From Thermoleophilum album (GTDB lineage Bacteria; Actinomycetota; Thermoleophilia; Solirubrobacterales; Thermoleophilaceae), in NCBI RefSeq assembly GCF_900108055.1, contig NZ_FNWJ01000001.1, forward strand, positions 310,001-374,000: a stretch of 64,000 bases of DNA, read 5' to 3'. Shown here piece after piece: positions 1-56,584 of the stretch. How positions within the stretch are numbered: the first letter of the stretch is position 1; every line of letters starts with the position of its first letter. Both the position numbers and the translations under genes were made by a program. The notes beneath the pieces are model-generated. The model was given only the letters and a program-made list of their open reading frames with translations, ran no database searches and was not told where the DNA came from.

Positions 1-2
1 CG

Positions 3-110
3 ACGATGAAGTACATGCACCACCGCAGCCGCGCCGGCGACGCGCGGCTGCTCTCGGCGGCGTTCCGCGCCAAGAAGCGCAAGGCCGCGAAGAAGGCGGC
101 GCCGGCGTAG
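3..110 (+). CDS. Tyrosine recombinase/integrase, C-terminal end (partial)
   Basis: Only the last 35 residues are present; the gene begins left of the window. The reading frame ends at TAG 108-110 and contains TMKYMHHRSR followed by DARLLSAAF and a Lys/Ala-rich tail. A T-x-x-Y-x-H pattern near the C-terminus is typical of the catalytic tyrosine region of phage/ICE tyrosine recombinases, with the Tyr as likely nucleophile. The Lys/Ala tail would suit DNA binding. The gene suggests that an integrated element lies at or left of the window edge. The fragment is short, so the assignment rests on one motif. Confidence 0.55.
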   Translation, partial: TMKYMHHRSRAGDARLLSAAFRAKKRKAAKKAAPA

Positions 111-22197: not shown

Positions 22198-23076
22198 ATG
22201 GCCCAGACCACGACCGCCGCCGAGCGCGCCGCGCGCCGCGCCGCCGATCGCGACCGCCTCGAGCAGGCCGCCCACGCGCTGCTGTCAACCGACGGCTGGC
22301 AGCGCTGGCTGCGCGTGCGCGCGACCAACGGCCTGGCGCGCTACTCGCTCGGCAACCAGATGCTGATCGCATGGCAGAAGCCCGACGCCACGTTCGTGGC
22401 CGGCTTTCGCGCGTTCCTGAAGCTCAACCGCTGCGTGCGCAAGGGCGAGAAGGCCATCCGGATCCTCGCCCCGATGACGGTCCGCCAGCGCGACGCCGAC
22501 GACGCCGACGAGGACGAGCGCCGCACCGTCTTCCGCTCGGTCGCCGTGTTCGACGTCTCCCAGACCGATCCGCTGCCCGGCCGCGACCCGGTCGCGCTCG
22601 AGCCTCCGCGCACGCCGATCAGCGGTGACAGCCACGCGCGCCTGCTGACGCCGCTCGAGAACCTCGCCGGGCAACTCGGCTACAGCGTCCGGTACCTGCC
22701 GCTCGACGGCGGCGCCGACGGCTGGTGCGACCCACACCGCATGGAGATCGTCATCAACGAGCACCTCGCGGCCAACGCGCAGGTCCGCGTGCTCGTCCAT
22801 GAGCTGGCGCACGCGCTCGGCGTCGGCTACCGCCAGTACGGCCGACAGCAGGCCGAGGTCCTCGTCGACTGCGTCACCTACATCGTCTGCGGCTCGGCCG
22901 GGCTCGACGTCTCCGGCGAGAGCGTGCCCTACGTGGCCGGCTGGGGCGAGGAGGGCGCGCTCGACGCCATCCGCGAGTACGCCGGCACGATCGACACGAT
23001 CGCCCGCCGGATCGAGACGGCGATCGGCGAGGACGAGACGGCCGACGACGACACGGCGAACGCCCTCGCGGCGTAG
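22198..23076 (+). CDS. ardC: ArdC-type antirestriction protein
   Basis: A 292-residue protein with an N-terminal ArdC-like ssDNA-binding domain (residues ~15-100: LLSTDGWQRWLRVRAT, YSLGNQMLIAWQKP, VRKGEKAIRILAPM) and a C-terminal zinc metallopeptidase-like domain with HELAHALG at residues 201-208. Further ligands are likely in the QQAEVLVDCVTY helix. ArdC proteins coat incoming single-stranded plasmid or ICE DNA and protect it from host restriction. Start ATG 22198. It is a typical early gene of conjugative or mobilisable elements, consistent with the MobF relaxase downstream. The sequence looks intact. Confidence 0.82.
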   Translation: MAQTTTAAERAARRAADRDRLEQAAHALLSTDGWQRWLRVRATNGLARYSLGNQMLIAWQKPDATFVAGFRAFLKLNRCVRKGEKAIRILAPMTVRQRDADDADEDERRTVFRSVAVFDVSQTDPLPGRDPVALEPPRTPISGDSHARLLTPLENLAGQLGYSVRYLPLDGGADGWCDPHRMEIVINEHLAANAQVRVLVHELAHALGVGYRQYGRQQAEVLVDCVTYIVCGSAGLDVSGESVPYVAGWGEEGALDAIREYAGTIDTIARRIETAIGEDETADDDTANALAA

Positions 23077-26823: not shown

Positions 26824-29800
26824 ATGCTTTCTATCGGCAAGCTCGGACAAGGCCAGGCCGACTACTACCTCCAAGCGGTCGGCCAGGGCATCGAGGACTA
26901 CTACACCGGGGCCGGGGAAGCCCCCGGCCGCTGGCTCGGCTCCGCCGCCGACGAGCTCGGCGCCGACGGTGAGGTCGATGCCGCAGCCCTGCACGCCGCG
27001 CTCACCGGCAACCACCCGCTCACCGGCGCCCAGCTCGCGCGCCCGCCGCGCGGCGGCATCCGCGTGCCGGGGTTCGACCTGACGTTCTCGGCGCCCAAGA
27101 GCGTCAGCGTCCTGTTCGGGCTCGGCGACGCGGCGCTCAGCCGTGAAGTCCGCGACGCGCACGAGGCGGCGGTCGAGGCCGCGCTCGGCTACATGGAGCG
27201 CCAGGCCGCCGTCGCGCGCCGCGGCCGTGGCGGCACCGAGAGCGTCCTCGGCAACGGCTTCGTCGGCGCCGCCTTCCGCCACCGCACCAGCCGCGCCGGC
27301 GACCCACAGCTCCACACCCACGTGCTCGTCGCCAACATGACCCGAGGACCCGACGGCCGCTGGACCGCACTCGACGCGCGCCGCCTCTATGCCCAGGCCA
27401 AGACCGGCGGCTACCTCTACCAGGCCCACCTGCGCGCCGAGCTGACCCGCCGCCTCGGCGTCGAATGGACCACGATCCACCGCGGCGCGGCCGAGGTCGA
27501 CGGCATCCCCGCGCGCGTGCTGCGCTCGTTCAGCCGCCGGCGCGCAGAGATCGAAGAGCAGATGCGCGACCGCGGCGACACCAGCTCGCGCGCCGCCCAG
27601 GTCGCCGCGCTGGACACCCGGCAGGCCAAGGACTACGCCGTCGCCCCCGCGTCGCTCGCCGCGCGCTGGCGCGACCAGGCGCGGGCACTCGGCTTCGAGC
27701 CCGACAGCGTCCGCGACCTCACCGGGCGCCAGCAGCCGCGGCACCTCGCGCCGTCCGCCGAGCGCGCGATCCACGACCACCTCGGCGGCCCCGATGGCCT
27801 CACCCGCCAGCGCTCGACCTTCGCGCGCCGCGAGGTGATCCAGGCGTGGTGCGAGCAGCTGCCGGACGGCGCGCCGGTCGCCGACGTCGAGCGCCTCGCC
27901 GACGACTTCATCACCAGCGAACGCGCCGTGCCGCTCGCCGCCGACGTGCGCGGCCTCACCGGCACGGACGTGATCCGCCGCGCCGACGGACGCGTCGTCC
28001 CCGCCACGGCCGATGAGCGCCCGCACTCCACCCCCGAGCTGCTCGCCCTCGAGCGTGCCCTCATCGAGCGCGCCGCCGCCCGCCACGACGACCGCGTCGG
28101 CGTGGTCAGCACCGACGCCGTAGACGCCGCGCTCACCGGTCGGCCCACGCTGTCTTCGGAGCAGGAGCAGATGATCCGCCGCCTGACGACCGAGGGCGCC
28201 GGCGTGGCCGTCGTCGTCGGCAAGGCGGGCACCGGCAAGACCTTCGCGCTCGACGCGGCGCGCGAGGCGTGGGAGCGCCAGGGCTACCGGGTCGTCGGTG
28301 CCGCGCTCGCGCGCCGCGCGGCGCGGGAGCTCCAGGACGGCTCGGGGATCGAGTCCACCAGCGTCGCCGCGCTCCTCCAGGACCTGCGCGACGGTGGGGA
28401 GCGCAGCCTGCTGGGTCGTGGCCGCTGCGTGCTCGTGATCGACGAGGCCGGCATGGTCGGGACCCGCCAGCTCGCCGAGCTGCTCGACCATGCCGCCGCC
28501 GCCCGAGCCAAGGTCGTCCTTGTCGGCGACGACCGCCAGCTGCCCGAGATCGATGCCGGCGGCGCCTTCCGCGGACTCGCGCACCGTCTGCGTCCTATCG
28601 AGCTCGTCGAGAACCGCCGTCAGCAGCATCAGTGGGAGCGCGAAGCCCTCGACCTGCTGCGCGAGGGCCGCGCCGCCGAGGCGATAGCCCGCTACGAGGA
28701 ACGTGGCCGCGTCGTGCTCGCCGACACCGCCGGCGAGGCCCACGACCGCCTCGTGGCCGACTGGTGGACCGCCGCGAGCCGCGGCGAGGAGGCCGTGATG
28801 GTCGCCGCCCGCCGCGTCGACGTCGCCGAGCTGAACGCCCGCGCCCGCGCGCTGATGGCGCGCGACGGGCGCCTCGGCTCCACCGAGATCGAGGTCGCTG
28901 GGCGGCGCTTCGCGACCGGCGACCACGTCGTTGCGCTGGCCAACGCCCGCCGCCTCGGGGTGCTCAACGGCACGCGCGGTGTCGTCACCCACGTCGATAC
29001 CACTGCGCATGCGCTCGAGCTCGCGACGCCCGACGGCACGCGCATCCTCCTCCCCGCCGGCTACCTCGACGCGCGCACCCCCCGCGGCGGCGCGACGCTC
29101 GACCACGGCTACGCGATCACCGGCCACAAGAGCCAGGGCATGACCACCGGCCGCGCCTTCGTCCTCGGTACCGAGGGGCTCTACCGCGAATGGGGCTACG
29201 TCGGTCTCAGCCGCGGACGCACCGAGAACCGTCTTTACCTCGTCGCGCCCGAGCCGCCCGAACGCGACGAGTACGCCCCGCCGGAGGCGCGCAAGGACGC
29301 GCTCGAGGCGGCGATCTCAGCGCTTGGTCGCAGCCGCGCACAGCACATGGCCACCGACGTGGAGCAGCAGGCGAAGGTGCAGGCGCTGTCGCACGAGCAG
29401 CTGCGCTCCGAGCTCGACCGGCTGCGGCCGCAGACGATCGCGTCGTCGTCGCCGGTTCAGAAGCGCCTCGAGCGCCAGCTGCGCAGCGTCAAGCAGCAGC
29501 GCCTGGCGGCAGAGGAACGCGCCGCGTCCGAGCCGTCAGCGTCCGAACTCCAGCGGGACGCCGAAGACGCCCGCCTGTCCGCGGCGCGAGCTCATGCGCT
29601 GGAACGCGCTCGGGATCTCGCAGCGCAGGAGCGGACCCTCGAGCGTCGGCTCGAGCAGGCGCAGGTCGCCGCGCCGGCGCGCGACAGCGCCTACGTTGCC
29701 GTCCTCGACGCGGAGCTTCGCCGCCGCACCGACGTCGCCGTGCAGAAGGCGATCGCCGATCCGCCGGCGTACGTCATCGCGGCGGTCGGCGAGCGGCCGG

Positions 29801-30030
29801 ACCGCCTTGCGCACCGCCGCGCGTGGTACCGCGCTGTCCGGCAGATCGAGACCTACCGCTGGCGGTACGGCGTGCGCGACAACGAGTGCGCTCTCGGCGC
29901 AGAGCCCCCGAGAAACGACATCGGCATGCGCGCGGCCTGGCGGGACGCGAAGAACGAGATCGTTCGCGCGCAGCAAGAGATCGAACAGACTGCCGAGCGG
30001 CATCGCGACGCCGCTCGCGCGGTGGAATGA
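26824..30030 (+). CDS. MobF-family conjugative relaxase-helicase (TraA/TrwC-like)
   Basis: A 1068-residue protein. The TrwC relaxase domain spans ~1-330: tandem tyrosines in QADYYLQ and in GIEDYYTGAGEAPGRW, FDLTFSAPKSVSVLFGLGD, and the metal-binding His motif GDPQLHTHVLVANM near residue 164. The helicase domain has Walker A VVVGKAGTGKTFALDAAR near 465, Walker B VLVIDEAGMVG, and VLVGDDRQLPEIDAGGAF, as in RecD-like SF1B helicases. A UvrD-like C-motif HGYAITGHKSQGMT comes near residue 765. The final ~200 residues are coiled-coil rich. It nicks oriT, stays bound to the strand and unwinds it. No type IV secretion genes are in this window, so mobilisation would need help. Sequence appears intact. 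Confidence 0.93.
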   Translation: MLSIGKLGQGQADYYLQAVGQGIEDYYTGAGEAPGRWLGSAADELGADGEVDAAALHAALTGNHPLTGAQLARPPRGGIRVPGFDLTFSAPKSVSVLFGLGDAALSREVRDAHEAAVEAALGYMERQAAVARRGRGGTESVLGNGFVGAAFRHRTSRAGDPQLHTHVLVANMTRGPDGRWTALDARRLYAQAKTGGYLYQAHLRAELTRRLGVEWTTIHRGAAEVDGIPARVLRSFSRRRAEIEEQMRDRGDTSSRAAQVAALDTRQAKDYAVAPASLAARWRDQARALGFEPDSVRDLTGRQQPRHLAPSAERAIHDHLGGPDGLTRQRSTFARREVIQAWCEQLPDGAPVADVERLADDFITSERAVPLAADVRGLTGTDVIRRADGRVVPATADERPHSTPELLALERALIERAAARHDDRVGVVSTDAVDAALTGRPTLSSEQEQMIRRLTTEGAGVAVVVGKAGTGKTFALDAAREAWERQGYRVVGAALARRAARELQDGSGIESTSVAALLQDLRDGGERSLLGRGRCVLVIDEAGMVGTRQLAELLDHAAAARAKVVLVGDDRQLPEIDAGGAFRGLAHRLRPIELVENRRQQHQWEREALDLLREGRAAEAIARYEERGRVVLADTAGEAHDRLVADWWTAASRGEEAVMVAARRVDVAELNARARALMARDGRLGSTEIEVAGRRFATGDHVVALANARRLGVLNGTRGVVTHVDTTAHALELATPDGTRILLPAGYLDARTPRGGATLDHGYAITGHKSQGMTTGRAFVLGTEGLYREWGYVGLSRGRTENRLYLVAPEPPERDEYAPPEARKDALEAAISALGRSRAQHMATDVEQQAKVQALSHEQLRSELDRLRPQTIASSSPVQKRLERQLRSVKQQRLAAEERAASEPSASELQRDAEDARLSAARAHALERARDLAAQERTLERRLEQAQVAAPARDSAYVAVLDAELRRRTDVAVQKAIADPPAYVIAAVGERPDRLAHRRAWYRAVRQIETYRWRYGVRDNECALGAEPPRNDIGMRAAWRDAKNEIVRAQQEIEQTAERHRDAARAVE

Positions 30031-30784: not shown

Positions 30785-31945
30785 TCACCGCGCCCGCGCC
30801 CGCGGCGGCGCTGCAGTCAACCGGGGGGCGGCGCCAGGAGCGCCGACGCTCGCCGGCACGCCAGGCGCGTCCGTGCTTGCGGCCTGGCGGGTCGCGCCGC
30901 GCAGGGCCGCGGGCCGCAGGCCCAGCCGGCGCGCGAGCGCGAGCTGGCGGCCCGGTCCGCCGGCTCTGAGTTCGCGCGCCACCGCGGTCCGTTCGCCGGG
31001 CGTGAGCCCGCGGCGGGCGGGGACCGGGTGATGCGGCGAGCGCTCGGCGCCCGCGCGCAGCCCCAGCCGCCGCAGGCGCTGGGTGATCGCCTCGGGGCTG
31101 CGGTCCACCAGCTCGGCGAGCGCCGCCGGGTTCAGTGCGGCGTGCAGCCGCAGAAGCTCGTCCTCGCGAGCGCTCCAGGGCCGACCGCGTCCGGTACGCG
31201 CGGACCGGGGGGCCGGGATGCCCAGCTTGCGGGCGCGGGCGCGCAGCGCCTCGGGGGTGCGCGCCAGCAGGTGCGCGGCGCGTTCGAGCTCGATCCCGTC
31301 GCGCGCGAGCTGCCGCAGGTCGCGGTCCTCGCGGGCCGTCCACGCCCGCGCGTAGGTCGCCAACCCGAGCTTGGCGGCGCGCGCGGCGACCGCCGTGGCG
31401 ATGCGCCCGGAAAGCTCGGCGGCGATCTGCGCGCACGTCAGCCCGCGCTCGTAGCCGTCGCGGACCGCGGCGTCCTCATACGGCTGCCACCGCGGTCGCG
31501 CGGGCGGGCGGTGCAGCCCGAGCTTGCGCGCGCGCAGCCGCAGCGATCCGGCGCTTCGCCCCAGCGCGACCGCGAGCGCCTCGACGTCGCCGCCTGCTGT
31601 CCAGCAGGCGGCGATCGCGTCGTCCTCGGCGGCGCTGAAGGCACGCGGGGCGCGGCCGGAGCCGACCAGCACGCGGCGGCGGCGGACCTGCTCGGCCGGG
31701 CGCCGCAGCCGAGCGGCGATCGCGGTCGCTTGCAGCCCGAGCGCGGTGCCCGCGCGCAGCAGTTCATCCTCGGCCGGCGACCACGGCCGCTGACGTGGCC
31801 GCGGGGCGATGCCCAGCGTGCGGCGGCGCTCGGACACGGCGTCCTGGGAGCGCCCGACCTGCTCGGCGATCGCGCGCAGCGGCGCGCCCTGCCCGTAGAG
31901 CCGGCGCAGCACCCGGTCCTCCTCGGGCGACCAGCGCGGCGGCAC
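30785..31945 (-). CDS. Protein of about six tandem Myb/SANT-like repeats
   Basis: A 386-residue protein built of repeats of about 48-50 residues. Repeat starts, each with an aromatic residue and an ED pair, are RWSPEEDRVLRRL, RPWSPAEDELLRA, RAFSAAEDDAIAA, PRWQPYEDAAVRD, RAWTAREDRDLRQ and RPWSAREDELLRL; a degenerate seventh begins RGLTPGERTAVA. Each ends in a recognition-helix-like part such as DAVSERRRTLGI or EALRARARKLGI. This is the W-x-ED-x-L, three-helix pattern of Myb/SANT and GcrA-like DNA-binding domains. The role is unknown: probably a modular DNA-binding protein. GTG 31945 lies two bases after the stop of the secreted protein gene, so they are coupled. Confidence 0.75.
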   Translation of the reverse strand: MPPRWSPEEDRVLRRLYGQGAPLRAIAEQVGRSQDAVSERRRTLGIAPRPRQRPWSPAEDELLRAGTALGLQATAIAARLRRPAEQVRRRRVLVGSGRAPRAFSAAEDDAIAACWTAGGDVEALAVALGRSAGSLRLRARKLGLHRPPARPRWQPYEDAAVRDGYERGLTCAQIAAELSGRIATAVAARAAKLGLATYARAWTAREDRDLRQLARDGIELERAAHLLARTPEALRARARKLGIPAPRSARTGRGRPWSAREDELLRLHAALNPAALAELVDRSPEAITQRLRRLGLRAGAERSPHHPVPARRGLTPGERTAVARELRAGGPGRQLALARRLGLRPAALRGATRQAASTDAPGVPASVGAPGAAPRLTAAPPRARAR

Positions 31946-31947
31946 CT

Positions 31948-32262
31948 CTAGTCTCCCGCGTGTGGGCGCGGCTCACGGCGCATGCCGGCGGCGCGCAGCT
32001 CGGTGTGCCACGCCAGCGGGCGTGCCGCGCCGGTGTGAATGACGACGACCGCGCCGGGGCGGGCGCCCGGCAGGACGTCATAGACCTCGCGGCACCGGAA
32101 CAGCCCCCAGCGCACGACGCGGGGATCGAGCGCGGCGTCGCCCAACTCCAGCTCGGTGGCAAACACGGTGATCTCCTGCGGGCACGTCGAATCGCCAGCA
32201 GAGGCAGCCGTGACCTCGGCGGCGCCAACCGTGAACGCCACGGTGCACGCTACCAGCAGCAC
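31948..32262 (-). CDS. Small secreted protein, paralogue of 32474-32704
   Basis: A 104-residue protein from GTG 32262 with a signal peptide (MLLVACTVAFTVGAAEVTA) and a mature part CPQEITVFATELELGD, VVRWGLFRCREVYDVLPGAR and VVVIHTGAARPLAWHTELRA. Two cysteines (in TCPQE and FRCRE) could form a disulphide outside the cell. The mature part aligns with the protein at 32474: both have T-E-L, VRW-LF, V-DVL, V-VIH and a final ELRAAG/ALKDAG helix. No family is recognised. It directly precedes the Myb-repeat gene and is probably co-transcribed. Confidence 0.6.
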   Translation of the reverse strand: MLLVACTVAFTVGAAEVTAASAGDSTCPQEITVFATELELGDAALDPRVVRWGLFRCREVYDVLPGARPGAVVVIHTGAARPLAWHTELRAAGMRREPRPHAGD

Positions 32263-32473: not shown

Positions 32474-32704
32474 TCACGGTGCTCGTACATCCCTGCTGTC
32501 GAGCCCGGCGTCCTTGAGCGCCCGCAGCCAGCGCACGGGCTGCGCGCGGCCGCGATGGACGATCACGACGCGGTCACGCTCGCCGGTGGCCAGCACGTCG
32601 CGGACGTCGTGGAAGATGAACAGCTCCCAGCGCACCCAGCGCCAATGCTCGGATCCACCCGGGACCCGCAGCTCGGTCAGGAAGATGTCGTGGTCGGCCC
32701 ACAT
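32474..32704 (-). CDS. Small cytoplasmic protein, paralogue of 31948-32262
   Basis: A 76-residue protein from ATG 32704, the only usual start after the in-frame TAA just upstream. Features: MWADHDIFLTELRVPGGSEH, WVRWELFIFHDVRDVLATGE, RVVIVHRGRAQPVRWLRALK. It shares the TEL, VRW-LF, DVL and VIH blocks with the secreted protein at 31948 but has no signal peptide and no cysteines. The two are 211 bases apart on the same strand; the intervening DNA shows no gene. Function unknown. Confidence 0.55.
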   Translation of the reverse strand: MWADHDIFLTELRVPGGSEHWRWVRWELFIFHDVRDVLATGERDRVVIVHRGRAQPVRWLRALKDAGLDSRDVRAP

Positions 32705-32827: not shown

Positions 32828-33946
32828 ATGGCGACGGTCGCGTGCCCCGAGCGCTTTCTGTACGACGCGATGCGCGCCGGGCTGGTGCTCGGCTGGCTGT
32901 CGGTCACCGCGGTGCTGGCCGCGCTGGCGCTCGGGGTGCACGTCGAGCGCCTGGAGGCGGTGCTGGGGCTGACCACGGCCGCCGCCGCCGCCCACAGCGC
33001 GATCGCCGCCGTGCCGTGGCGGCGCTGGCTGCCCGCCCGCCGCGGCCGCGTGCTGCTGGACCTGTGGTCGGTCGGGCTGCTCGGCTACGTCACGCTGCTA
33101 GTGATCGCGGCCGGCGCGCACACCGGCCTTGACCTGCTGCTGTTCCTCGTCGTGCCGTTCCTCGCGCTCGCCCACGACGGGCGCCGCCGCGCGCTGTTTC
33201 TGGCCGGCGCCGCGCTGGCCTACCTGGCCGCGATGGCGCTCGCGCCCGACCCGTTGGCGCTCGGCGCCGTCGCGCTGCGCGGCGTGCTGCTGTGCGCCGT
33301 CGCGGTGCTGGCGCTGATCCTCGACCGCGCGGTCCGCCACGAGGCCGCCGCCCGGGCCCAGGCCGCAGCCCGCGCCGAGCTCGAGCACGCCCTGCTCGCC
33401 GAATCCCACCACCGCGTCAAGAACAGCCTGCAGACCGTCGCCGACCTGCTGCTGCTCAGCCGCCCCGGCAACGGCGACGGCGACGGCTTCGATCGCACCG
33501 CCGAGCGCATCCGCGCGATCGCCGCCGTCCACCACCTGCTCGCCGACCGCCGCGGACGCGCCGTCACCGCCGCCGAGCTGCTGCACGGCGTCGCGCGCGC
33601 CGCCGCCCCCGACACCCCCTGCCAGGTACAGGCCGACGATGTCCTGCTCGCGCCCGCCCAGGCCCAGCAGCTCGGGATCGTCGCCAACGAGCTGATCGCC
33701 AACGCCGCCCGCCACGGCCATCCGCCGATCTCCGTGCGCCTCACGCTCGGCGACCACGCCCGCCTCGACGTCCACGACGCCGGCGGCGCCACCGCCAGCC
33801 AGCCAGACGGCCTCGGGCTGCGGCTCGTGCGCCAGGTCACCGAGCACGGACTCCACGGCAGCTTCACCCTCGCTCCCGATCCCGACGGCGGCAACCGCGC
33901 GCACGTGCGCTTCCCGCTGGTCGACCATGCGCGTCCTGATCGCTGA
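32828..33946 (+). CDS. Membrane sensor histidine kinase, HisKA_2 type
   Basis: A 372-residue kinase starting at ATG 32828. Residues ~15-170 form six hydrophobic helices with no recognised sensor domain. A short coiled region (AAARAQAAARAELEHALL) leads to the HisKA_2 phospho-His box ESHHRVKNSLQTVADLLLLS near residue 195. The ATPase domain has the N box VANELIANAARHGHPP and a G box QPDGLGLRLVRQVTEHG. HisKA_2 kinases such as EutW pair with ANTAR-type response regulators, exactly the partner encoded next, whose start overlaps this gene's end by 20 bases. The stimulus is unknown. Confidence 0.85.
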   Translation: MATVACPERFLYDAMRAGLVLGWLSVTAVLAALALGVHVERLEAVLGLTTAAAAAHSAIAAVPWRRWLPARRGRVLLDLWSVGLLGYVTLLVIAAGAHTGLDLLLFLVVPFLALAHDGRRRALFLAGAALAYLAAMALAPDPLALGAVALRGVLLCAVAVLALILDRAVRHEAAARAQAAARAELEHALLAESHHRVKNSLQTVADLLLLSRPGNGDGDGFDRTAERIRAIAAVHHLLADRRGRAVTAAELLHGVARAAAPDTPCQVQADDVLLAPAQAQQLGIVANELIANAARHGHPPISVRLTLGDHARLDVHDAGGATASQPDGLGLRLVRQVTEHGLHGSFTLAPDPDGGNRAHVRFPLVDHARPDR

Positions 33947-34526
33947 GGACAACCCGGTCATCGCCATGGGCCTCGCCGCCCGGCTGCGCGCCCTCGGGCA
34001 CCAGCCGCTCGGCCCCGCCCCCGACGGCCAGCAGGCGGTCGCGCTCGCGCGCGCCGAGCGCCCCGACCTCTACCTGTTCGACATCGACATGCCCCGTCTG
34101 GACGGTCTCGCCGCCGCCGCGCTGCTCGCCGGCGAGGGGCTGCGGCGCCCGATCGTCGCCATCACCGGCGTCGATGACCCCACGCTCGTCGACCGCTCGA
34201 TCGCCACCGGCGTCAGCGCCTACCTCACCAAGCCGATCGACGACCGCGAGCTCGACGCCGCGATCCGCCTCGCCTCACAGCGCCAGCACGAGCTCGAGGC
34301 GCTCGAGGCCGAGGCCGCCCAGGCCCGCGAGGCGCTCGCCGACCGCAAGCTCGTCGAACACGCCAAGGGCGTCCTGATCGACGCGCTCGGACTCTCCGAA
34401 CCCGAGGCGTTCCGCCGCATCCAGCGCACCGCCCGCCAGCGCAACCTGCGCCTCGCCGACGTCGCCCGCCAGATCATCGACCAGCGCGAGCTGCTCACCC
34501 CGCCGACGCGCGAGGACGCCCGCTAA
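33927..34526 (+). CDS. Response regulator with ANTAR RNA-binding domain
   Basis: A 199-residue protein. The receiver domain (1-120) has the acidic pair in VLIAEDNPVIAMG, phospho-Asp in DLYLFDIDMPRLDGL and the Lys in AYLTKPIDDRE. A coiled-coil linker (residues ~125-145) is followed by the ANTAR domain: ADRKLVEHAKGVLIDALGLS and EPEAFRRIQRTARQRNLRLA with VARQII. ANTAR proteins bind paired hairpins in nascent RNA and prevent termination. It overlaps the kinase gene, forming a EutW/EutV-like pair. No obvious dual-hairpin target is seen immediately downstream, where an IS110 remnant follows. Confidence 0.9.
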   Translation: MRVLIAEDNPVIAMGLAARLRALGHQPLGPAPDGQQAVALARAERPDLYLFDIDMPRLDGLAAAALLAGEGLRRPIVAITGVDDPTLVDRSIATGVSAYLTKPIDDRELDAAIRLASQRQHELEALEAEAAQAREALADRKLVEHAKGVLIDALGLSEPEAFRRIQRTARQRNLRLADVARQIIDQRELLTPPTREDAR

Positions 34527-34528
34527 CG

Positions 34529-34847
34529 CTAACGAGCGCTCGGGCGGGCGTCCACGCCCGCAGCCACCACGCCCGCAGGCCGCGGGGAGCCCGCGCCACG
34601 TCCCGGCCAGCCGGCCGGCGCGTCCCCGGGCCCATCTTGCGCCTGGTCCACGCCGCGCCCGGACACATGCCGGGGTCCTCGATCGCCCAGACGCGCTCGC
34701 CGTCGAGACCGCGCGCCCAGCGCCCCGCGGCCAGCATCCCGTCGACCTTGGCATTCACCGCCCGCGTCGCAACAGCCTGGCCCGTTGCCGCGGAGACGGC
34801 CGCCAGCGTGTGCGTGCTCTTGTGAGTGTCCGCGCCGATCACGATCA
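34529..34847 (-). pseudogene. IS110-family transposase fragment
   Basis: From ATG 34847 the sequence MIVIGADTHKSTHTLAAVSA is the classic start of IS110 transposases, with the first catalytic Asp in GADTHK. It continues through TRAVNAKVDGMLAAGRWARG and ERVWAIEDPGM, after which all frames lose similarity. The rest of the RuvC-like domain and the C-terminal Tnp_20 domain are missing. The fragment ends next to the response regulator stop. It is a dead remnant showing past transposition near the right end of the accessory block. Confidence 0.7.
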
Positions 34848-35126
34848 TGCAACCCCCGTCCCTTCCTCGATGACATCCGTCGAAGCGGACCTCCGGCGGA
34901 CGCACCTCAGTGGGGGCGATGCCACGCTCCTTATCAAGTCACGCCGGCGATCCTCGGCGGTGACGAGCGACACAACGCATGAAGGTCAGACCCATTTGGC
35001 CGACAGCGACCGTAAGGGCCAGCTTGCCACCGGCCGAGGAGCCTTCAGCACCGGTCAGACGACACCGTCCGTGATGTCGAGGTTCCCATTGAGAGCGACG
35101 GTATCCCGTCGCGGTGCGTGCCGGGA
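34848..35126. other. Non-coding stretch upstream of the IS110 remnant
   Basis: About 280 bases with no convincing gene on either strand. In IS110 elements the non-coding left end just upstream of the transposase encodes the bridge (seeker) RNA, so a remnant of it may lie here. No RNA fold could be confirmed by eye. Confidence 0.3.
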
Positions 35127-48826: not shown

Positions 48827-50392
48827 TTAGACGCTGCGGAAACGCTCGCCCGCTCCGGCCCCCTCGGTCAGTTGGGCACGCTGCTCGAGAGCAACCGCAA
48901 AGACATCCACCGGCTGGCTCTTGCCGCGTAGTTCCAGGGAGCCCCGCGAGATCAGCGGCAGGGTCACGCGCTGGAGGCGCTCGCGCGTCGCTTCCGTAAT
49001 CAGGATCACGTCACCGGTGCGCCTGGTCGCCCGTTCCACCCGCGCGGCAACGTTGACGGTGTCACCGATCACGGTGAAATCGAGCCGCCCACCGCCGCCG
49101 ACCGAACCGACCACCACCGGACCCGAGTTCAGTCCGATCCCGACACCAAGTCCGGCCGGTAGACGCTCGCGCACACGGCCAACGATCGCGATCGCCGCCT
49201 CGAGCGCTGCGTCGGCGTGGTCGTCGAGGCGTTCGGGCGCGCCGAACACCGCCAGCAGTCCGTCGCCGAGCAGCTTGTTCGCGTGCCCCCGGTGATTGTT
49301 CACCTCCGGGATCGCCGCCTCATAAAAGCGGTTGAGCAGGGCCACCGTTTCGCGCGGCGTCGCTCGCTCGGCGTAAGCCGTGAACCCGCTGATGTCGCAA
49401 AAGAGGACGGTCGCGTCGAGCTCTTGGCCGGCGAGCATCTCGCCTTCCGCGACGACCCGCTCGACGATCTCGCGCGTGCCGAGGTACGTGCCGAGCGCCT
49501 CGCGCAGCGTCTCCCGCTCGGCGAGGCCCTGCACCATCGCGTTGAAGCTGCCCGCCAGCGCACCGAGCTCGTCGCCGGACGTGACCCTTGCGCGGGCCGA
49601 CAGATCGCCCTCGGCGACCCGCGCGATTGCGCGCATCAGCTCCTCGATCTGCGCCAACACCGAGCGCGAAATCAGCCAAGTCAGCTCCAGCGAGACGGTG
49701 AAAGCGACCGCCACCGCCAGCAGCACGTCGATCCCCAGCTGGAAGAGGGTGCCCCGCGTCGGCGAGGAGAGACCGGCCACCACCACGCCGGTCGCGACGT
49801 TCATCACCGGTAGCGCACCGAGCAGTTTCCAGCGCAGCGAGATGCCGGGCGGAACGCCCGTCAGTGTCGACGGCAGTCGACCCGCAACGTCCTCCAAGAC
49901 CGGTCGCATGAACTGCTCGGAGGCCAGGAAGTGGAGCACCGCGGCGTATGCCACCGACACGAGAGCGCTCAGTGCAATCACGATCGTCGCCCAGAACGGC
50001 AGGCCGAAACGCAGTGTGTAGTAGGTCGCTACCGGCACCGAGACGAGCACGAAGGGTCGCCAGCTGTTGTCGACGATCACCTCGCGGGGAAGCGACACCG
50101 CGGTGCGCCAGGCGCGCAGCGCGTCGCGCTCGGGGCGTCCTGCCCGGATCCAATCGACTAGGGGCCGTGCGACCTTCGCGCCGCGCTTGATCGCGAGCGC
50201 TAGCGAGACCGTCACACAGCCGAGAGCGACAGCCATAACCTCCGCCAGCTCGCGCCCGCTCATCCTCGTGTAGAGGGCGAAGAGCGCGACGGTGGCGATC
50301 GTGATCAGCACCGCCGAGAAGATCTCGAAGGCGGCGAAGAGCACGAAGTAGCGGTGGCCGAGCGCCCGGTAGAGCGCGCGCAGGACGCGCAT
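48827..50392 (-). CDS. Membrane adenylate/guanylate cyclase with HAMP domain
   Basis: A 521-residue class III cyclase. The N-terminal ~235 residues hold six or more helices (YRALGHRYFVLFAAFEIFSA onwards), resembling the MASE2-like/integral membrane cyclases of Mycobacterium. A HAMP linker follows (SRSVLAQIEELMRAIARVAE, then DLSARARVTSGDELGALAG). The catalytic domain has TVLFCDISGFTAYAERATP, ANKLLGDGLLAVFGAPE (second Asp) and VIGDTVNVAARVERATRRTG. It makes cAMP or cGMP in response to an unknown signal. The start lies 60 bases after the last MCE gene on the same strand, so read-through from the MCE operon is possible. Confidence 0.88.
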   Translation of the reverse strand: MRVLRALYRALGHRYFVLFAAFEIFSAVLITIATVALFALYTRMSGRELAEVMAVALGCVTVSLALAIKRGAKVARPLVDWIRAGRPERDALRAWRTAVSLPREVIVDNSWRPFVLVSVPVATYYTLRFGLPFWATIVIALSALVSVAYAAVLHFLASEQFMRPVLEDVAGRLPSTLTGVPPGISLRWKLLGALPVMNVATGVVVAGLSSPTRGTLFQLGIDVLLAVAVAFTVSLELTWLISRSVLAQIEELMRAIARVAEGDLSARARVTSGDELGALAGSFNAMVQGLAERETLREALGTYLGTREIVERVVAEGEMLAGQELDATVLFCDISGFTAYAERATPRETVALLNRFYEAAIPEVNNHRGHANKLLGDGLLAVFGAPERLDDHADAALEAAIAIVGRVRERLPAGLGVGIGLNSGPVVVGSVGGGGRLDFTVIGDTVNVAARVERATRRTGDVILITEATRERLQRVTLPLISRGSLELRGKSQPVDVFAVALEQRAQLTEGAGAGERFRSV

Positions 50393-50452
50393 GCGCCAAT
50401 TGTGCCCGAGCGCCGGCGCGCGCGCCCTGTCCGCCGAGGGCGGCGGTGAAGC

Positions 50453-51967
50453 TCAGCGCGTCGGGTCGTCGGGGTTGGGGTCGACCGCGGGCCGGTTCCC
50501 GGCGCGGCCAGTCGGACGGGGCCGTAGGCGCGCGTCGCCGCGCTCGGGGATCACGAACAGCTTGCCGTCGTACAGCGAGGGCGGAGCCTCGAAGCACGGC
50601 GGGCGCTTGGCGGCGTCCTTGAGCAGCGGGATCGGCGGCGCGTTGAGCGCGTCGTCCGGGTTGGGCCGCTCGCCACCTGCCGGCGAACAGTCGAAGCTTT
50701 CGAGCGTGCCGAGCGCCGAGGCTCGCTCGATCGCGTTGGGCTGCAGGTACGCGTTGCCGCGCTCCCAGTCGGGTCTTGTCAGTCGAAACGCGAGCGAGCG
50801 TCCGTCGATGACGCCGACTTGGGTCTGTCCGCGCGTGCCGCCGACCTTGCTCGAGAGGTCCGGCGCAGCGTTCGAGATGAAGCCTGCGATCGTCGCCTGG
50901 TGGAAGTTGAAGTAGGCGAGGATTGGGTTGAGCTCGGGGAAGAACAGGCGCGCCGCTTCGAACAGCGGGTCGGCGCCGCGCAGCAGCCGCTCGAGGTCGG
51001 GGAGCGTGCGGCGTCCCGTCACAACGAGCGGATCGAGCTGCCGGAACAGCGCCCTCAGGTCGGGGGAGAGCGCGCGCAACGAGCGCAGCGTTGGGCCGAG
51101 GTCGTCGGCCGGACGTCGCAGCGTGCGAATCACCGGGCGCGTGCGGCCCGAGAAGTCCTCGAGTGTGCGCATCGTCGCGCGCGCCTCGTTGAGGAACACC
51201 GGGAAGATCCGGAACGTCTCGGCGAGCGCGCGGTCGCGCGAAGCGGTCGCCTCGAACGTGCCCGCCGTGCCTTCGACCAGACGACGCAGCTCGCCGCGGC
51301 GGGCGGTTACCGCGCTGAGCGCGGTGCCGCCATCGCGCACCAGCGTGCGCACGGCGCGACGTTGCTCGTCGGCGATACGCAACAGATCGGTGGCGTCGGC
51401 GGCAAAGCGCGGGAAGGTGCCGAAGGCATCGTTGAGATCGCGGTCGGCGGTGCCCCGGCCGACCACCGCCAGCTCCTGCATCCACTGCTGGAAGTTGCGC
51501 CGCGTCTCGGGGCCGAAGGCGCGGAAGATTTCGTCAAGCTCGACCGTCCGCCCGACCTGCGAATCGGGCAGGCGTGCACCGTCGGCCAGCATCCCGGCCG
51601 AGCGGTGACCGGGCGTGAGCTCGACGTAAGTCTCCCCGAGCAGCGTCTTCTGGCGCAGGATCGCTCGCGTGTCGCGCGGCAGGGGCGCGAACTCCGGCTT
51701 GATCTCGAGCGTCGCCAGTGTGCGGTTGCTGGCGGCATCGAGCCGCTTGCCCTTGACCTTGCCGACGTTCACGCCGGAGATCCGCACGTCCGCCTCGTCC
51801 GCCAGCTGAACGGTCTCGGGGAAAGCGACCTTGAGCCGGTAGGACTTCGGCGCGAGCGGCAACGTGCCGCCGAACGACACCCACAGGAACAGCAGAATCG
51901 CGAAGCATGAGAGGCTGAAGCCGACGATCGCCGCGACCTGCCCGGCCTTGAGCCCGCGCGTCATCAC
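50453..51967 (-). CDS. MCE family protein (sixth of cluster)
   Basis: A 504-residue MCE protein. One N-terminal helix (VAAIVGFSLSCFAILLFLWV), then an MlaD/MCE domain at ~35-115 (YRLKVAFPETVQLADEADVR, ISGVNVGKVKGKRLD), a long helical needle region and a C-terminal Pro/Arg-rich tail. MCE proteins form substrate-binding hexamers for lipid import across the envelope. ATG 51967 overlaps the previous gene's stop (ATGA). It is the last of six consecutive MCE genes transcribed from right to left. Confidence 0.88.
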   Translation of the reverse strand: MMTRGLKAGQVAAIVGFSLSCFAILLFLWVSFGGTLPLAPKSYRLKVAFPETVQLADEADVRISGVNVGKVKGKRLDAASNRTLATLEIKPEFAPLPRDTRAILRQKTLLGETYVELTPGHRSAGMLADGARLPDSQVGRTVELDEIFRAFGPETRRNFQQWMQELAVVGRGTADRDLNDAFGTFPRFAADATDLLRIADEQRRAVRTLVRDGGTALSAVTARRGELRRLVEGTAGTFEATASRDRALAETFRIFPVFLNEARATMRTLEDFSGRTRPVIRTLRRPADDLGPTLRSLRALSPDLRALFRQLDPLVVTGRRTLPDLERLLRGADPLFEAARLFFPELNPILAYFNFHQATIAGFISNAAPDLSSKVGGTRGQTQVGVIDGRSLAFRLTRPDWERGNAYLQPNAIERASALGTLESFDCSPAGGERPNPDDALNAPPIPLLKDAAKRPPCFEAPPSLYDGKLFVIPERGDARLRPRPTGRAGNRPAVDPNPDDPTR

Positions 51968-53415
51968 TGGCCACCACCTCCCCCTCCGGAGCCGCTACCC
52001 GAGCGCAGGTCGCAGTCGCCGGCGAGCAACGAGACACCGCTCTGGTCGAGCGCGTTCAAGACGTTGTTGAGCTGGTTGGTCAGCTGATCGCGAAGACCGG
52101 ACAGCGAGTCGGGAATCTGATCGATCTGCTGGAGGATCAGGCCCGCAACCAAGCCGCAGCTGAGCCCGCCCAAGGAGATTCGCCGGTAGGGCCCGGTGGC
52201 GTCCGACGTACTAAACAGCGAAACGGCGTTGTTACCGGTCCAGGCAAGCCAGTACAGGTAGCCCTCGTTGCGGTTGCGTTCGGCCGCGGTGCAGCGGCCC
52301 TCGCGCTCGCACCCCTCGCTGATTCCCTCGGCGCCACCCGGGTTGTAGGCGCCGATGTTGAAGAGACGGTTGAGCCGCAGCAGCGTGCCGGTGATCTCGG
52401 GTGCTCCCTGGGCGAGCCCCGACCCGGCCACCCCCAGCCGCAGCAAGAACGGTGCGGCCTCACGGGCGAACGGGCGGATGCGGTCGCGCACGGTGGCGGT
52501 GCGCGCGCTCGCTAGATCGCGCAGCGCAGCGTTGGAGGCGGGCAGCTCGCGCACTACCGGGATCAAGTCGCGCAGCGTCGGCCGCAGTTCGCGCGCGAAC
52601 GGCTCGACGCGGGCGAGCGCCGCGCGCGTGGTGTCGAGCGCACCGGGTAGGCGGCGCACCGTCTCCCGCAGGTTGCGATCTTCGCTAGCGAAGGCGGCGA
52701 ACACGCGGTTGGAGTCGCGCACCAGTTGGCGCAGGGTGCGGTCGCGCTGCGCCAGCTCGCTCATCACCAGGCCGTACTCGTGCACCACTCGCCGCAGGTT
52801 GCGGCGCCGCTCGGCGAGCGCTGAGGCGAACCGCGCGAGGTCGCGGTGCAGGGGACCGAGCCGGGCGAGCGCTTCGCCGAGTTCGGTGCCGTGACCCTGG
52901 AGTCCCTTCCCCGCCCCGGTGATCAGGAGCTTTAAGTAGTCGCGGGTGTCGGCGTCCAGCGACGCGAGGACCTCGTCCTGGTTGACGTCTGGCAGCGTGT
53001 CGGAAAGCGGAATCCGCGCGCCTTCCCGAAGCCGTGGACCGTCGCCCGGGTCGACCTCGATGAACATGTCCTTAAGACCGGTCTTGGAGCGCAACAAGGC
53101 GCTGGCGTCGGTGCGCAGCAGCTGCCGGTAGCGGGGATCGATGTCGAGCCGCACGACGGCCCGGCCGTGCTTGAGGTCCACGGCCCCAACCTGACCGATC
53201 TCGACCCCCGCCACGCGCACGCTCTGGCCTTGCCCCGGGGTGACAGCCTGCGCACTCGAGAGCTCGGCGTAGATGCGGAAGGGCGGCGCTTCGATCAGCG
53301 GGATCCGCACCCCCGCCTGGTTCGCGAGGATGTAGCCGGCGACTACGACACCGATCGCCGCCGCCGCGACGAGCGCGACGAGGTCACGCAAATGTCGACG
53401 CAGCGCCTGTCTCAC
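51964..53415 (-). CDS. MCE family protein (fifth of cluster)
   Basis: A 483-residue MCE protein: N-terminal helix LVALVAAAAIGVVVAGYILA, MCE domain (FRIYAELSSAQAVTPGQGQS, VRVAGVEIGQVGAVDLKHG), then the helical region containing TLRQLVRDSNRVFAAFASED, and a C-terminal part with four Cys residues in a Gly-rich end (CDLRSGSGSGGGGGG). Of the six it has one of the shorter domains. It starts at 53415, overlapping the fourth gene's stop. Probably a subunit of the same heterohexamer. Confidence 0.86.
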   Translation of the reverse strand: MRQALRRHLRDLVALVAAAAIGVVVAGYILANQAGVRIPLIEAPPFRIYAELSSAQAVTPGQGQSVRVAGVEIGQVGAVDLKHGRAVVRLDIDPRYRQLLRTDASALLRSKTGLKDMFIEVDPGDGPRLREGARIPLSDTLPDVNQDEVLASLDADTRDYLKLLITGAGKGLQGHGTELGEALARLGPLHRDLARFASALAERRRNLRRVVHEYGLVMSELAQRDRTLRQLVRDSNRVFAAFASEDRNLRETVRRLPGALDTTRAALARVEPFARELRPTLRDLIPVVRELPASNAALRDLASARTATVRDRIRPFAREAAPFLLRLGVAGSGLAQGAPEITGTLLRLNRLFNIGAYNPGGAEGISEGCEREGRCTAAERNRNEGYLYWLAWTGNNAVSLFSTSDATGPYRRISLGGLSCGLVAGLILQQIDQIPDSLSGLRDQLTNQLNNVLNALDQSGVSLLAGDCDLRSGSGSGGGGGGQ

Positions 53416-54989
53416 CGCGCGCCCCCCTTCGCTCGTTGGCGACCACGGCCGGAGCTACGCGCCGCCGCGCGGGCGTCGAGACGGGCGATTTGCGCACGCG
53501 CTTCGGACATCAGCTGATCGAAGCGGCGGAAGGCGCGCGCAGCTCGCAGCAGGGCGCCGCGGTTGAGCGCGCGCCGCGCAGCGGCCTGCCGGCGCAGTGC
53601 GGCTTGGCCGGCGCTCCCGCGCACGTTGAAGGCAGAGGCCGGGCCCCCCGGCGCGTGGAGGTTCGGCGGCTCCTGCGTCTCGCAGGGCACGTCGGGCCGA
53701 TAGGGTGGCGGCTGCGTTGGGTTGAGCGACGGGCCCGGCCGCACCATCAGCGGCGGCAGCACGGCCATCGTGTTGAACATCTGATTGTTGCCGTCGGACA
53801 GGCGGCTCTCGCCGGCGAGCCCCGGAAAGCCGCGCTGCAGCTGGTAGCGCACGAGCTGGTTGTTGTTGCCTGGTTCGTCGGGGTTGGGGATCGGTGTGCG
53901 GACGAAGGGCACGAGCACCCGGTTCACGCAGCGCGAGAGCGAGCGGCCCTGCTCGGCGAGCGGCACCGAAAGGTTGTTGAGCCGCACGAGCGCGGGGGCA
54001 GACGCGCGCACGGCGGTGGCCAGCGCGCCGATTTCGTTCTGACGCAGCGCCAGCCGTAGCTGTGCGAGGAACGGCGTGCCGACGCGCAGCGCCGGCGGCG
54101 CGCTCTGCACTCCCGGCAAGGCTTCGCGCGCGAACACCCGCAGCGTCGGCAGCGACGCGTTCAACTCGCGCAGCGTCGGCATCGCCTGGCGCAGCGTGTC
54201 GCGCAGCGCCGGTAGCGAACGGGCCAGCGGATCGCGCTCCGCCGCGAGGGCGCTAGCAGTGCGTTCGAGGTTGTCGATCAGCCCGCGCAAGGCGTTGGCG
54301 TCGGCGGCGACGGCAGCGAAGGCACGCTGCTGGGCGCGCAGCACGCGCGGCAGGTCGCGGCGCGGCTCAAAACCAAGGGTGGCGTCGTTGGCAAGCGCCG
54401 AGAAGCGGTAGGCGGACTCCCAGAAGCGAGCGCCCTCGCGGAAGCCGGCGGCGCCCCGCTCAAGACCCACCGAGAGTTCGCGCAACAGCGTCTTGAGGTC
54501 GGCGCGCACGTCGCGCTGGAAGAGCTCGAGCACGCGCACGAACTGAACCGGCGCAGCGGTTTGCGACATCGGCACGGTGTCACCGCTGGCAAGCTCCGGA
54601 GCCGACGGCGAGCCGGGTTGGAGATCGACAAAGAAGTTGCCCTCGAGGAAGATCCGTGAGCGGATCTTGATGCGCGCGTCTTGGTGAATCGGGAGCGCCC
54701 TACGCGAGAGCTCCATCGTCACGATCGCCCCACCGCGCTCGCTGTCGAGTGGCTCGATCTTCGTGACCTTGCCGACGTCGACGCCGGCGATGCGCACGGG
54801 CGAGCGCGGCTGAAGGTTCGCCGCATCGGCGAACACCGCGCGCAGCACGAAGGGCCGCGCGAAGGGGTTGTCGCGGGTGAACCCGAACCAGCTAGCGAGC
54901 GCGATCACGGTGAGCGCGAGCACACCCGCCCGTAGCGGCGAGCCACCGCCCCAGCGCAGCGCCGACCTCTTCTTGGGCTTGGGACTCAC
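53412..54989 (-). CDS. MCE family protein (fourth of cluster)
   Basis: A 525-residue MCE protein: N-terminal helix AGVLALTVIALASWFGFTR, MCE domain (RPFVLRAVFADAANLQPRSP, VRIAGVDVGKVTKIEPLDSE), coiled region (AQQRAFAAVAADANALRGLI) and a tail of basic Ala/Arg sequence. Start GTG or ATG at 54989, overlapping the third gene's stop by four bases. Similar in length and layout to its neighbours; the six genes probably arose by duplication. Confidence 0.86.
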   Translation of the reverse strand: MSPKPKKRSALRWGGGSPLRAGVLALTVIALASWFGFTRDNPFARPFVLRAVFADAANLQPRSPVRIAGVDVGKVTKIEPLDSERGGAIVTMELSRRALPIHQDARIKIRSRIFLEGNFFVDLQPGSPSAPELASGDTVPMSQTAAPVQFVRVLELFQRDVRADLKTLLRELSVGLERGAAGFREGARFWESAYRFSALANDATLGFEPRRDLPRVLRAQQRAFAAVAADANALRGLIDNLERTASALAAERDPLARSLPALRDTLRQAMPTLRELNASLPTLRVFAREALPGVQSAPPALRVGTPFLAQLRLALRQNEIGALATAVRASAPALVRLNNLSVPLAEQGRSLSRCVNRVLVPFVRTPIPNPDEPGNNNQLVRYQLQRGFPGLAGESRLSDGNNQMFNTMAVLPPLMVRPGPSLNPTQPPPYRPDVPCETQEPPNLHAPGGPASAFNVRGSAGQAALRRQAAARRALNRGALLRAARAFRRFDQLMSEARAQIARLDARAAARSSGRGRQRAKGGAR

Positions 54990-56572
54990 GGGATGTCGCG
55001 CAGGTTCGTGATCCCGAGCCGGCGGGTAACGAACGTGCCGCCGGAGAGGATCGGGTAGTCGTTGATCGTGACCGCCGCGTTGCCACCGGTCGGTGTCCCG
55101 TCGGGCAGCACACCCGGTCCGTAGCGCGATCCGGGCGGGGTCAGCGGGCCGTTCGGGTAGCCCTCTTGCCCGCGCTGGCAGTCGGCGTTCCCTTGCGCGT
55201 CGATCGCTGGCGAATAGGCCGGTGCGATAAAGCGGTGCAGCGGCTGGCCAATCGCGTCGCGCGCGCCGCGCGCCTTCATCCCCGGTGGGACGTCAACCGG
55301 CCGCGAGCTCTCGCTGGTGCCATAGTTGTTGGGCTGGAGCAGGTTCGGCAGCTTCAAGAGCTGCGCCTGGTTGGTGCCGGCGCCGTCAATGGACAGGCCG
55401 GACTGGTGTTCACCGAGCGGGTGGAGGAAGTAGATGGCGTAGTTGCAGACCGTCTGGTAGGGAGCAATGAACTCGGCCGCCGGCCGCGTCACGGTGAGCG
55501 CCGCACGCACGTCGCGCAGCGCCGGCAGCGTGTCCGGCTCGGTGAACAGGAAGGTGGCGGCGGCGAGCGCGCTGCGGGTCCGGCGACTGAGATCGACGGT
55601 GCGCGGCAGCACGTCGGTACCCGCTAGCAGTGCGCTATCGACCGCCGGCAGCGAGAACCGTGCCTCGCGCAGCGCCGGCCGCAGACGACCGGCAAGGTCG
55701 TTGAGATCTACATACAACGGCCGCTGCGCGCGGAAACTGGTGATCGAAGCGTCGAGCGTGGGCGGCGAGCGTTCGATCGTCTGCTGCAGCGCGCGCGGAT
55801 CGGCGGCGATCGCATCAAAGGTCGTCGCCATGTCGCGAAAACTGCGCGCGAACTCGGTCGCGACCGGCGCTAGCTCGCCGGTGAAGGCCCGTAGCGACGC
55901 GATGAAGCGGGGCAGGCCGGTGGCCGGGTCTGAGAGGTTGCGGGCCACCGGTTCGAGGCGTCGCAGAAGCGGCGGCAGGAGCGCGATTGTCTGGTTCAGC
56001 GAGCTGCCGCGCCCGGCGAACGCGTCGCCGAACGCGTCGAGTGAATCTTGGATTGCGGGGCGCGTGCGATCGTCGAAGGTTGCGAACAGGTCCTCGATCT
56101 CGGCTGGTTCGCGCGCCTGGGAGAGGGGAATCGTGGAGCCGGCAGCCAGCTTCTCACGCGAGCGCCCGGGCGTCAGCTCCACGTACTTGAGACCGAGCGC
56201 CGAGCGCTGGCGAACGAGCACACGGGTGTCGCGCGGCAACGGTTCGACCGACTTGTCGAGCTTCATCGTGATCAGCGCGACCGCACGCCGGCGACCGCCG
56301 CGCTCGACCACCTTCGGCTCGATGTCGCTCACCAAACCCACCCGGAAACCACCGATGCGCACGTCGTTGCCGGTCGTGAGCTTCGAGCCCGAGGGAATCT
56401 CCGCCCGCAGTTCGTAGGTGGGAACGAACGGCAAACCTTCGTTGGCGGTGTAGGCGATGTAGACGGCGGTGACCGTGACGAGCACCGTCACCGCGCCGAT
56501 CAAAAGTGGGCTGCCGCTAAGCGCTGCGATGCGCCTGCCCCGGCGCGGCCTCTTTGCTGTCACCGTCGCCAT
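54986..56572 (-). CDS. MCE family protein (third of cluster)
   Basis: A 528-residue MCE protein: N-terminal helix SPLLIGAVTVLVTVTAVYIA, MCE domain (YELRAEIPSGSKLTTGNDVR, IGGFRVGLVSDIEPKVVERG), then helical segments and a C-terminus containing YQTVCNYAIYFLHPLGEH. ATG 56572 begins 12 bases after the second gene's stop, the only junction of the cluster that does not overlap. A conserved aromatic CNYxxYFLxPL motif also occurs in mycobacterial Mce proteins of this position (recalled). Confidence 0.86.
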   Translation of the reverse strand: MATVTAKRPRRGRRIAALSGSPLLIGAVTVLVTVTAVYIAYTANEGLPFVPTYELRAEIPSGSKLTTGNDVRIGGFRVGLVSDIEPKVVERGGRRRAVALITMKLDKSVEPLPRDTRVLVRQRSALGLKYVELTPGRSREKLAAGSTIPLSQAREPAEIEDLFATFDDRTRPAIQDSLDAFGDAFAGRGSSLNQTIALLPPLLRRLEPVARNLSDPATGLPRFIASLRAFTGELAPVATEFARSFRDMATTFDAIAADPRALQQTIERSPPTLDASITSFRAQRPLYVDLNDLAGRLRPALREARFSLPAVDSALLAGTDVLPRTVDLSRRTRSALAAATFLFTEPDTLPALRDVRAALTVTRPAAEFIAPYQTVCNYAIYFLHPLGEHQSGLSIDGAGTNQAQLLKLPNLLQPNNYGTSESSRPVDVPPGMKARGARDAIGQPLHRFIAPAYSPAIDAQGNADCQRGQEGYPNGPLTPPGSRYGPGVLPDGTPTGGNAAVTINDYPILSGGTFVTRRLGITNLRDIP

Positions 56573-56584
56573 CGCCTCACCACC

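What the first reader, a model, noticed from the sequence alone, without database searches (positions are those of the whole stretch)
30785..31945. Bacterial protein of about six tandem Myb/SANT-like repeats
Repeats of ~48-50 residues with the W/F-x-x-x-ED-x-L start and an Arg-rich recognition helix are arranged in series, as in eukaryotic Myb proteins. Single GcrA-like or Myb-like domains are known in bacteria; six in a row is unusual. A modular DNA reader, possibly recognising a long site or repeats, is plausible.
Basis: partly seen in the sequence, partly recalled or inferred. Interest (0 to 1): 0.62.

Follow-up and report, generated by a model that had tools for sequence, protein, structure and literature searches.

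The report
Six-repeat GcrA/Myb-type DNA reader
A bacterial gene in a metal-resistance, transfer-gene-bearing DNA island encodes a string of six small DNA-binding modules, each folded like the DNA-binding part of the cell-cycle regulator GcrA and joined as in eukaryotic Myb proteins, and it probably recognises one long DNA address.

Summary
The minus-strand gene 30785-31945 (386 aa, GTG start) carries six Myb/SANT-like repeats at residues 5, 55, 103, 153, 202 and 257, plus a degenerate seventh unit at 314. They score 58.7 against each other versus 24.5±1.5 for shuffles. AlphaFold gives six three-helix units. The closest solved fold is the GcrA DNA-binding domain (Z 8.8, 1.2 Å over 49/49 residues); the best multi-repeat matches are c-Myb, SNAPc and Reb1 bound to DNA. 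Five more full-length homologues (43-70% identical) occur in 232 genomes of the order, scattered and horizontally moved. Each repeat is conserved by position and the gene is under purifying selection. In three genomes it stands divergent from a histidine kinase/ANTAR pair across a conserved ~40-bp element unique in each. In the window it lies in a GC-rich island edged by an integrase, with metal-resistance, ArdC and MobF relaxase genes. Long arrays are not unique: sphingomonad plasmids and viral-collection contigs carry a seven-repeat array, without repeat-by-repeat correspondence to this one, behind a DUF87/HerA-type ATPase. Most likely a sequence-specific DNA reader acting as a local transcription regulator; DNA binding and target are inferred, not shown. 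A new, undescribed array variant of a known domain.

The parts
30785..31945 (-). myb6: six-repeat Myb/GcrA-type protein, 386 aa, GTG start
31799..31936 (-). repeat 1 (aa 4-49)
   Evidence: repeat HMM 59 bits; helices 7-18, 23-30, 34-44
31652..31786 (-). repeat 2 (aa 54-98)
   Evidence: 42 bits; helices 57-68, 73-80, 84-93; superposes on GcrA DBD-DNA 5yiv Z 8.2, 0.8 A over 44/45
31508..31642 (-). repeat 3 (aa 102-146)
   Evidence: 50 bits; helices 105-116, 121-128, 132-141
31358..31492 (-). repeat 4 (aa 152-196), most conserved repeat of the family
   Evidence: 52 bits; superposes on GcrA DBD 5yiu Z 8.8, 1.2 A over 49/49; highest cross-species score 135
31211..31345 (-). repeat 5 (aa 201-245)
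   Evidence: 48 bits; helices 204-215, 220-227, 231-241
31049..31180 (-). repeat 6 (aa 256-299)
   Evidence: 36 bits; helices 259-267, 273-280, 284-293
30866..31009 (-). degenerate seventh unit (aa 313-360, LTPGE motif), conserved in five of the six full-length homologues
   Evidence: 24 bits; three helices with pLDDT about 60-66; alignment; absent in G181
32201..32240 (-). conserved ~40-bp element upstream of myb6, occurring once per genome in three genomes, with two adjacent potential hairpins
31948..32166 (-). small ORF (72 aa from an RBS-preceded GTG) ending 2 nt before the myb6 start; likely translationally coupled leader gene; shortened relic in G135
   Evidence: sequence
32474..32704 (-). 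paralogue of the small ORF (76 aa)
   Evidence: local score 109 versus 25.8 +- 4.8 shuffled
32828..33946 (+). histidine kinase (HisKA_2/HWE + HATPase_c), divergent from myb6; conserved neighbour in G135 and G229
33927..34526 (+). response regulator with ANTAR RNA-binding domain
26824..30030 (+). MobF/TrwC relaxase-helicase next to myb6
22198..23076 (+). ArdC-like antirestriction gene of the same island
1..110 (+). end of a tyrosine-type phage integrase gene (starts 1071 bases left of the window) at the left edge of the GC-rich island

Best explanation
The gene encodes a tandem array of six GcrA-type Myb/SANT three-helix DNA-binding units (plus a degenerate seventh), joined by short basic linkers. 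The array most likely lies along DNA with successive recognition helices reading one long composite site, so that it has a single or very few addresses. It most likely works as a local transcription regulator of the mobile metal/stress-response island that carries it, acting at the shared promoter region with its neighbouring signalling genes. Shown here: the repeats, their predicted fold, positional conservation, purifying selection, scattered horizontal distribution, the island context, and the conserved unique upstream element. Inferred: DNA binding, reading of a long site, and the regulatory role. Which protein binds the upstream element is open.
For: Six three-helix units predicted. GcrA DBD is the top structural match: Z 8.8, 1.2 A over 49/49, and in complex with methylated DNA Z 8.2, 0.8 A over 44/45. 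The multi-repeat matches are DNA complexes of SNAPc, c-Myb and Reb1. The family profile finds Cbp1 (CRISPR-repeat binder, 2.7e-6) and c-Myb R1R2R3 (3.1e-6) by sequence. pI 11.5-11.8, 16-19% Arg in all six homologues. Each repeat matches its own position across species far better (103-135) than the other repeats (45-74 among repeats 1-6), so the order is fixed as expected if each repeat reads its own part of a site. Next to signalling genes in every genome: HK/ANTAR divergent in three, BlaI/M56 in two (divergent in one, same strand in the other), an ECF-like sigma gene divergent in one. Metal and redox genes 15 hits in 81 kb beside myb6 versus 6 in 451 kb of control DNA.
Against: pTM is 0.28, so the arrangement of the six units is not predicted. 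No SELEX or footprint exists. The conserved upstream element occurs only where the HK/ANTAR pair is the neighbour, so it may belong to that pair and not to the array. The metal-gene enrichment rests on three of five loci, and one control region also hit a similar cluster. Z-scores of about 8 are not high for small helical domains (note).
Confidence: 0.55

Rival explanations
1. It is an accessory DNA-binding protein for maintenance or transfer of the mobile element (origin-of-transfer, centromere or motor-loading reader), not a promoter regulator.
For: In the window it sits beside a MobF relaxase in an integrase-edged island with ArdC. In 8 of 8 full-length alphaproteobacterial-type seven-repeat cases examined, the array gene lies directly behind a DUF87/HerA-type ATPase, as a reader paired with a DNA motor would. 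The distribution is scattered and horizontal.
Against: The relaxase is not a neighbour in the other five myb6 loci, and no ATPase of that kind was seen beside the array in this family. The sphingomonad array shows no positional register with this one, so its partner need not transfer.
Confidence: 0.2
2. It is a low-specificity, array-type DNA-coating protein (nucleoid- or silencer-like, as phage T5 D5 may be), using many basic HTH units for avidity.
For: PHROG_323 'transcriptional regulator, D5-like' matches at 1e-45 in four stretches. T5 D5 itself belongs to that family (1.2e-71) and its record calls it a DNA-binding protein required for replication and late transcription. The protein is very basic.
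Against: The match to D5 is at repeat level only (profile 94-191 of 319, repeated). Strict position-specific conservation of every repeat is not expected for a coating protein.
Confidence: 0.15
3. It is a SANT-type protein-protein scaffold or helical solenoid that does not bind DNA.
For: Many eukaryotic SANT domains bind proteins (general knowledge). Spliceosomal Cdc5/Cef1 is among the structural matches.
Against: pI 11.5-11.8, Arg-rich third helices, best match the GcrA DNA-binding domain, no predicted packing between units (pTM 0.28).
Confidence: 0.05

Closest known systems
GcrA (Caulobacter, PF07750) DNA-binding domain
   Same: Repeats have the same three-helix fold, to 0.8-1.2 A; Pfam GcrA passes its cut-off.
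   Different: GcrA has one such domain plus a sigma-binding C-terminal domain (PMC7403470). Here there are six in series, the Pfam match covers only profile positions 7-53 of 155, and the host is an actinobacterium (inferred).
Eukaryotic multi-repeat Myb proteins (c-Myb R1R2R3, SNAPC4, Reb1)
   Same: Tandem Myb units in series on DNA; matched by structure, and c-Myb and SNAPC4 also by the family sequence profile.
   Different: Bacterial, six units with GcrA-like loops; no evidence of common descent as arrays.
Phage T5 D5 / PHROG_323
   Same: Best profile family match, 1e-45; D5 is recorded as a DNA-binding regulator.
   Different: Match is repeat by repeat and not colinear; D5 has only one unit detectable with the repeat HMM.
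Sphingomonad plasmid seven-repeat proteins behind a DUF87/HerA ATPase (mostly annotated hypothetical)
   Same: Same kind of repeat, 6-7 in series, on mobile DNA.
   Different: 28-33% identity, no repeat-to-repeat register, different partner genes.
Archaeal Cbp1 (2lvs), CRISPR-repeat binder
   Same: Tandem HTH units binding a long DNA repeat; sequence-profile match 2.7e-6.
   Different: Fewer HTH units, different family model (12.1 bits against a cut-off of 140).

Membership tests
Myb/SANT-like domain superfamily (Pfam PF13921, PF00249) | three-helix HTH repeat of about 45-52 aa with W...ED start, above the curated score | tested here: met
   43.2 and 38.7 bits against cut-offs 22.9 and 24.4; helices
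GcrA cell-cycle regulator | GcrA-type DNA-binding domain | tested here: met
   28.4 bits against cut-off 26.9; Z 8.8 and 8.2
GcrA cell-cycle regulator | C-terminal sigma-interacting domain and single-DBD layout | tested here: not met
   best Pfam stretch covers profile 7-53 of 155 only; six DBD-like units instead of one
PHROG_323 D5-like regulators | full-length colinear match | tested here: not met
   four separate stretches, best onto profile 94-191 of 319, whereas T5 D5 matches 3-270 in one stretch
PHROG_323 D5-like regulators | DNA binding with a role in phage replication or late transcription | not testable with these tools
   D5 annotation only
Cbp1 CRISPR repeat-binding protein (NF040595) | score above the equivalog cut-off | tested here: not met
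   12.1 bits against 140
Sphingomonad seven-repeat plasmid family | repeat-by-repeat colinearity | tested here: not met
   34-55% of permutations of repeat order score at least as well as the colinear order
Sphingomonad seven-repeat plasmid family | placement behind a DUF87/HerA ATPase | tested here: not met
   neighbours are a MobF relaxase and an HK/ANTAR pair

The most novel reading that the evidence does not exclude
Probability: 0.3. Interest if true: 0.75.

Novelty: new variant of a known kind. Interest (0 to 1): 0.5.

Why it matters
Single Myb/GcrA-type domains are known in bacteria, but searches of the held open-access papers found no description of long bacterial arrays. Two families with no detectable repeat register (this one and the plasmid seven-repeat one) show the design recurs on mobile DNA. 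If the repeats each read a few bases, they would give a comparable set from which a recognition code could be derived, and a family of natural long-site DNA binders.

Tried and rejected
Close homologues in viral contigs, phages and plasmids with the window protein itself: none in viral contigs; one partial hit in phages and 13 in plasmids, none covering 80% of the query. Common ancestry of this array with the sphingomonad array by repeat register: not supported at this sensitivity. Conserved upstream element as a general operator of myb6: it is absent in G249, G342 and G181, so it tracks with the HK/ANTAR pair. ANTAR-target RNA reading of its two hairpins: loops are 7 nt and do not keep the A1/G4 hexaloop of known ANTAR RNAs (PMC8164766), only wobble changes support stem 1 and stem 2 is invariant, and there is no Rfam hit; left open as weak. 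The small ORFs as a general partner: the four genomes with a match (own included) do not include the other myb6 genomes. att repeats for the island: only 13-15-base matches, chance-like in this composition. ARAGORN's tRNA-Asp at 34127 lies inside the response-regulator gene and is taken as false. Literature: no paper found on long bacterial Myb arrays; the GcrA-DNA structure paper is not held, so residue contacts were not compared.

Full report
Check. The ORF 30785-31945 on the minus strand (386 aa, GTG) contains six W/F-x-x-x-ED repeats at residues 5, 55, 103, 153, 202 and 257 and a degenerate unit at 314. Pairwise repeat score 58.7 against 24.5±1.5 in 500 shuffles. Pfam Myb_DNA-bind_6 (4e-11), Myb_DNA-binding (1e-9) and GcrA (2.6e-6) all pass their cut-offs. 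Codon comparison with homologues gives dN 0.25, dS 0.78 to the nearest and a third-position excess in all pairs, so this frame is the selected one and the overlapping antisense ORF is not.

Family. In 396 genomes sampled from the phylum only the window's own appeared. Identities of the aligned homologues to the window are 70, 64, 54 and 43%; G342 aligns at 53-55%. The distribution is scattered (5 of 54 genera; the same-genus genomes G001 and G002 show no match, G002 being only 72% complete) and not vertical: the two members of genus g37 (G181, G229) are about 41% identical while G229 is 64% identical to the window, which lies in another family. Between species each repeat matches its own position at 103-135 and, among repeats 1-6, the other repeats at only 45-74. 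The array was therefore complete before these genes diverged and each unit has been held in place.

Structure. AlphaFold2 with six aligned sequences (mean pLDDT 74, most of the repeat region 70-92) gives six helix triplets plus a weak seventh; pTM 0.28 means no fixed arrangement of the units is predicted. Among solved structures the Caulobacter GcrA DNA-binding domain heads the VIA-align list (5yiu Z 8.8, 1.2 A over 49/49; 5yiv with methylated DNA Z 8.2, 0.8 A over 44/45). Foldseek's leading multi-repeat matches are SNAPc, c-Myb and Reb1 on DNA, none below E 0.001. By sequence alone the family profile finds Cbp1 and c-Myb R1R2R3. All members are Arg-rich (16-19%) with pI 11.5-11.8.

Neighbourhood. 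The window from 1 to about 35 kb has 72-75% GC against 64-72% in the stretches of the genome sampled outside it. Its left edge is a phage-type integrase gene running into the window (-1071 to 110). It carries thioredoxin/DsbD, CtaG, DtxR-type, ZIP, multicopper-oxidase, cation-efflux and P-type ATPase genes, ArdC, the MobF relaxase, myb6 and the HK/ANTAR pair. A right-hand att site was not found. The HK/ANTAR pair is divergent from the array in G000, G135 and G229; in G249 the divergent neighbour is a BlaI repressor followed by an M56 peptidase; in G342 BlaI/M56 lie upstream on the same strand; in G181 the divergent neighbour is an ECF-type sigma gene. Homologues of the island's metal/redox genes are denser near myb6 (15 in 81 kb, from three of five loci) than in control DNA of G000, G181, G249 and G135 (6 in 451 kb).

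Upstream element. Between kinase and array, window, G135 and G229 share about 40 bp (32201-32240 minus; G135 and G229 agree at roughly three quarters of the positions, by eye). A 31-base consensus made from these three hits exactly once in each of their genomes and nowhere in the five other myb6-bearing genomes (full-length or fragment), with zero reversed-control hits. It can form two adjacent hairpins, but sequence variation does not separate an RNA structure from a DNA inverted-repeat operator, and it does not match known ANTAR RNA loops (PMC8164766). In the window the stretch lies within the longest reading of a small ORF; an RBS-preceded GTG at 32166 makes it non-coding and leaves a 72-aa ORF that ends 2 nt before myb6.

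Wider view. Sphingomonad plasmids carry a seven-repeat relative (23 of 28 plasmid records with a match cover at least 80% of the query) and contigs of the viral collection carry arrays of 2-7 units. All eight full-length sphingomonad-type cases examined lie directly behind a DUF87/HerA-type ATPase. Repeat order does not correspond between that family and this one, so either the arrays were built independently or the register has been erased.

Judgement. That it is a tandem GcrA/Myb-type array is practically certain; that it binds DNA is likely (about 0.85); that it reads one long site and regulates its island is the best-supported mechanism (0.55) but unproven. It is not a GcrA (no sigma-binding part found, six units) and not a colinear D5 relative. 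Novelty: new variant of a known kind.

Noticed in passing
L002 4652-8002; L004, L005, L006, L053-L056: Sphingomonad plasmid and viral-collection module: DUF87/HerA-type ATPase directly followed by a seven-repeat Myb array, then variously an N6_Mtase-like gene, an HATPase-type protein and a PAPS-reductase-like gene; function unknown.
   Followed up: partly
L059 4870-7455 (also L060-L062): 862-aa protein of contigs in the viral collection joining an SF2 helicase, an HNH-like stretch and five to six Myb-like units.
   Followed up: no
window 31948-32166 and 32474-32704: Two paralogous small ORFs of unknown family just upstream of myb6; relatives in only three other genomes of 249 in the class.
   Followed up: partly
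L033, L035-L039: HNH-type proteins of the same class with two N-terminal HTH repeats, picked up by the same profile.
   Followed up: no
window -1071 to about 35000: Probable integrated mobilisable metal-resistance island: integrase at left edge, ArdC, MobF relaxase, raised GC; right end and att sites not located; a weak IS110-type match at 34495-34905 may mark debris.
   Followed up: partly
window 48827-59658: Run of co-directional ORFs of about 450-580 aa that look by eye like an mce operon; not tested.
   Followed up: no
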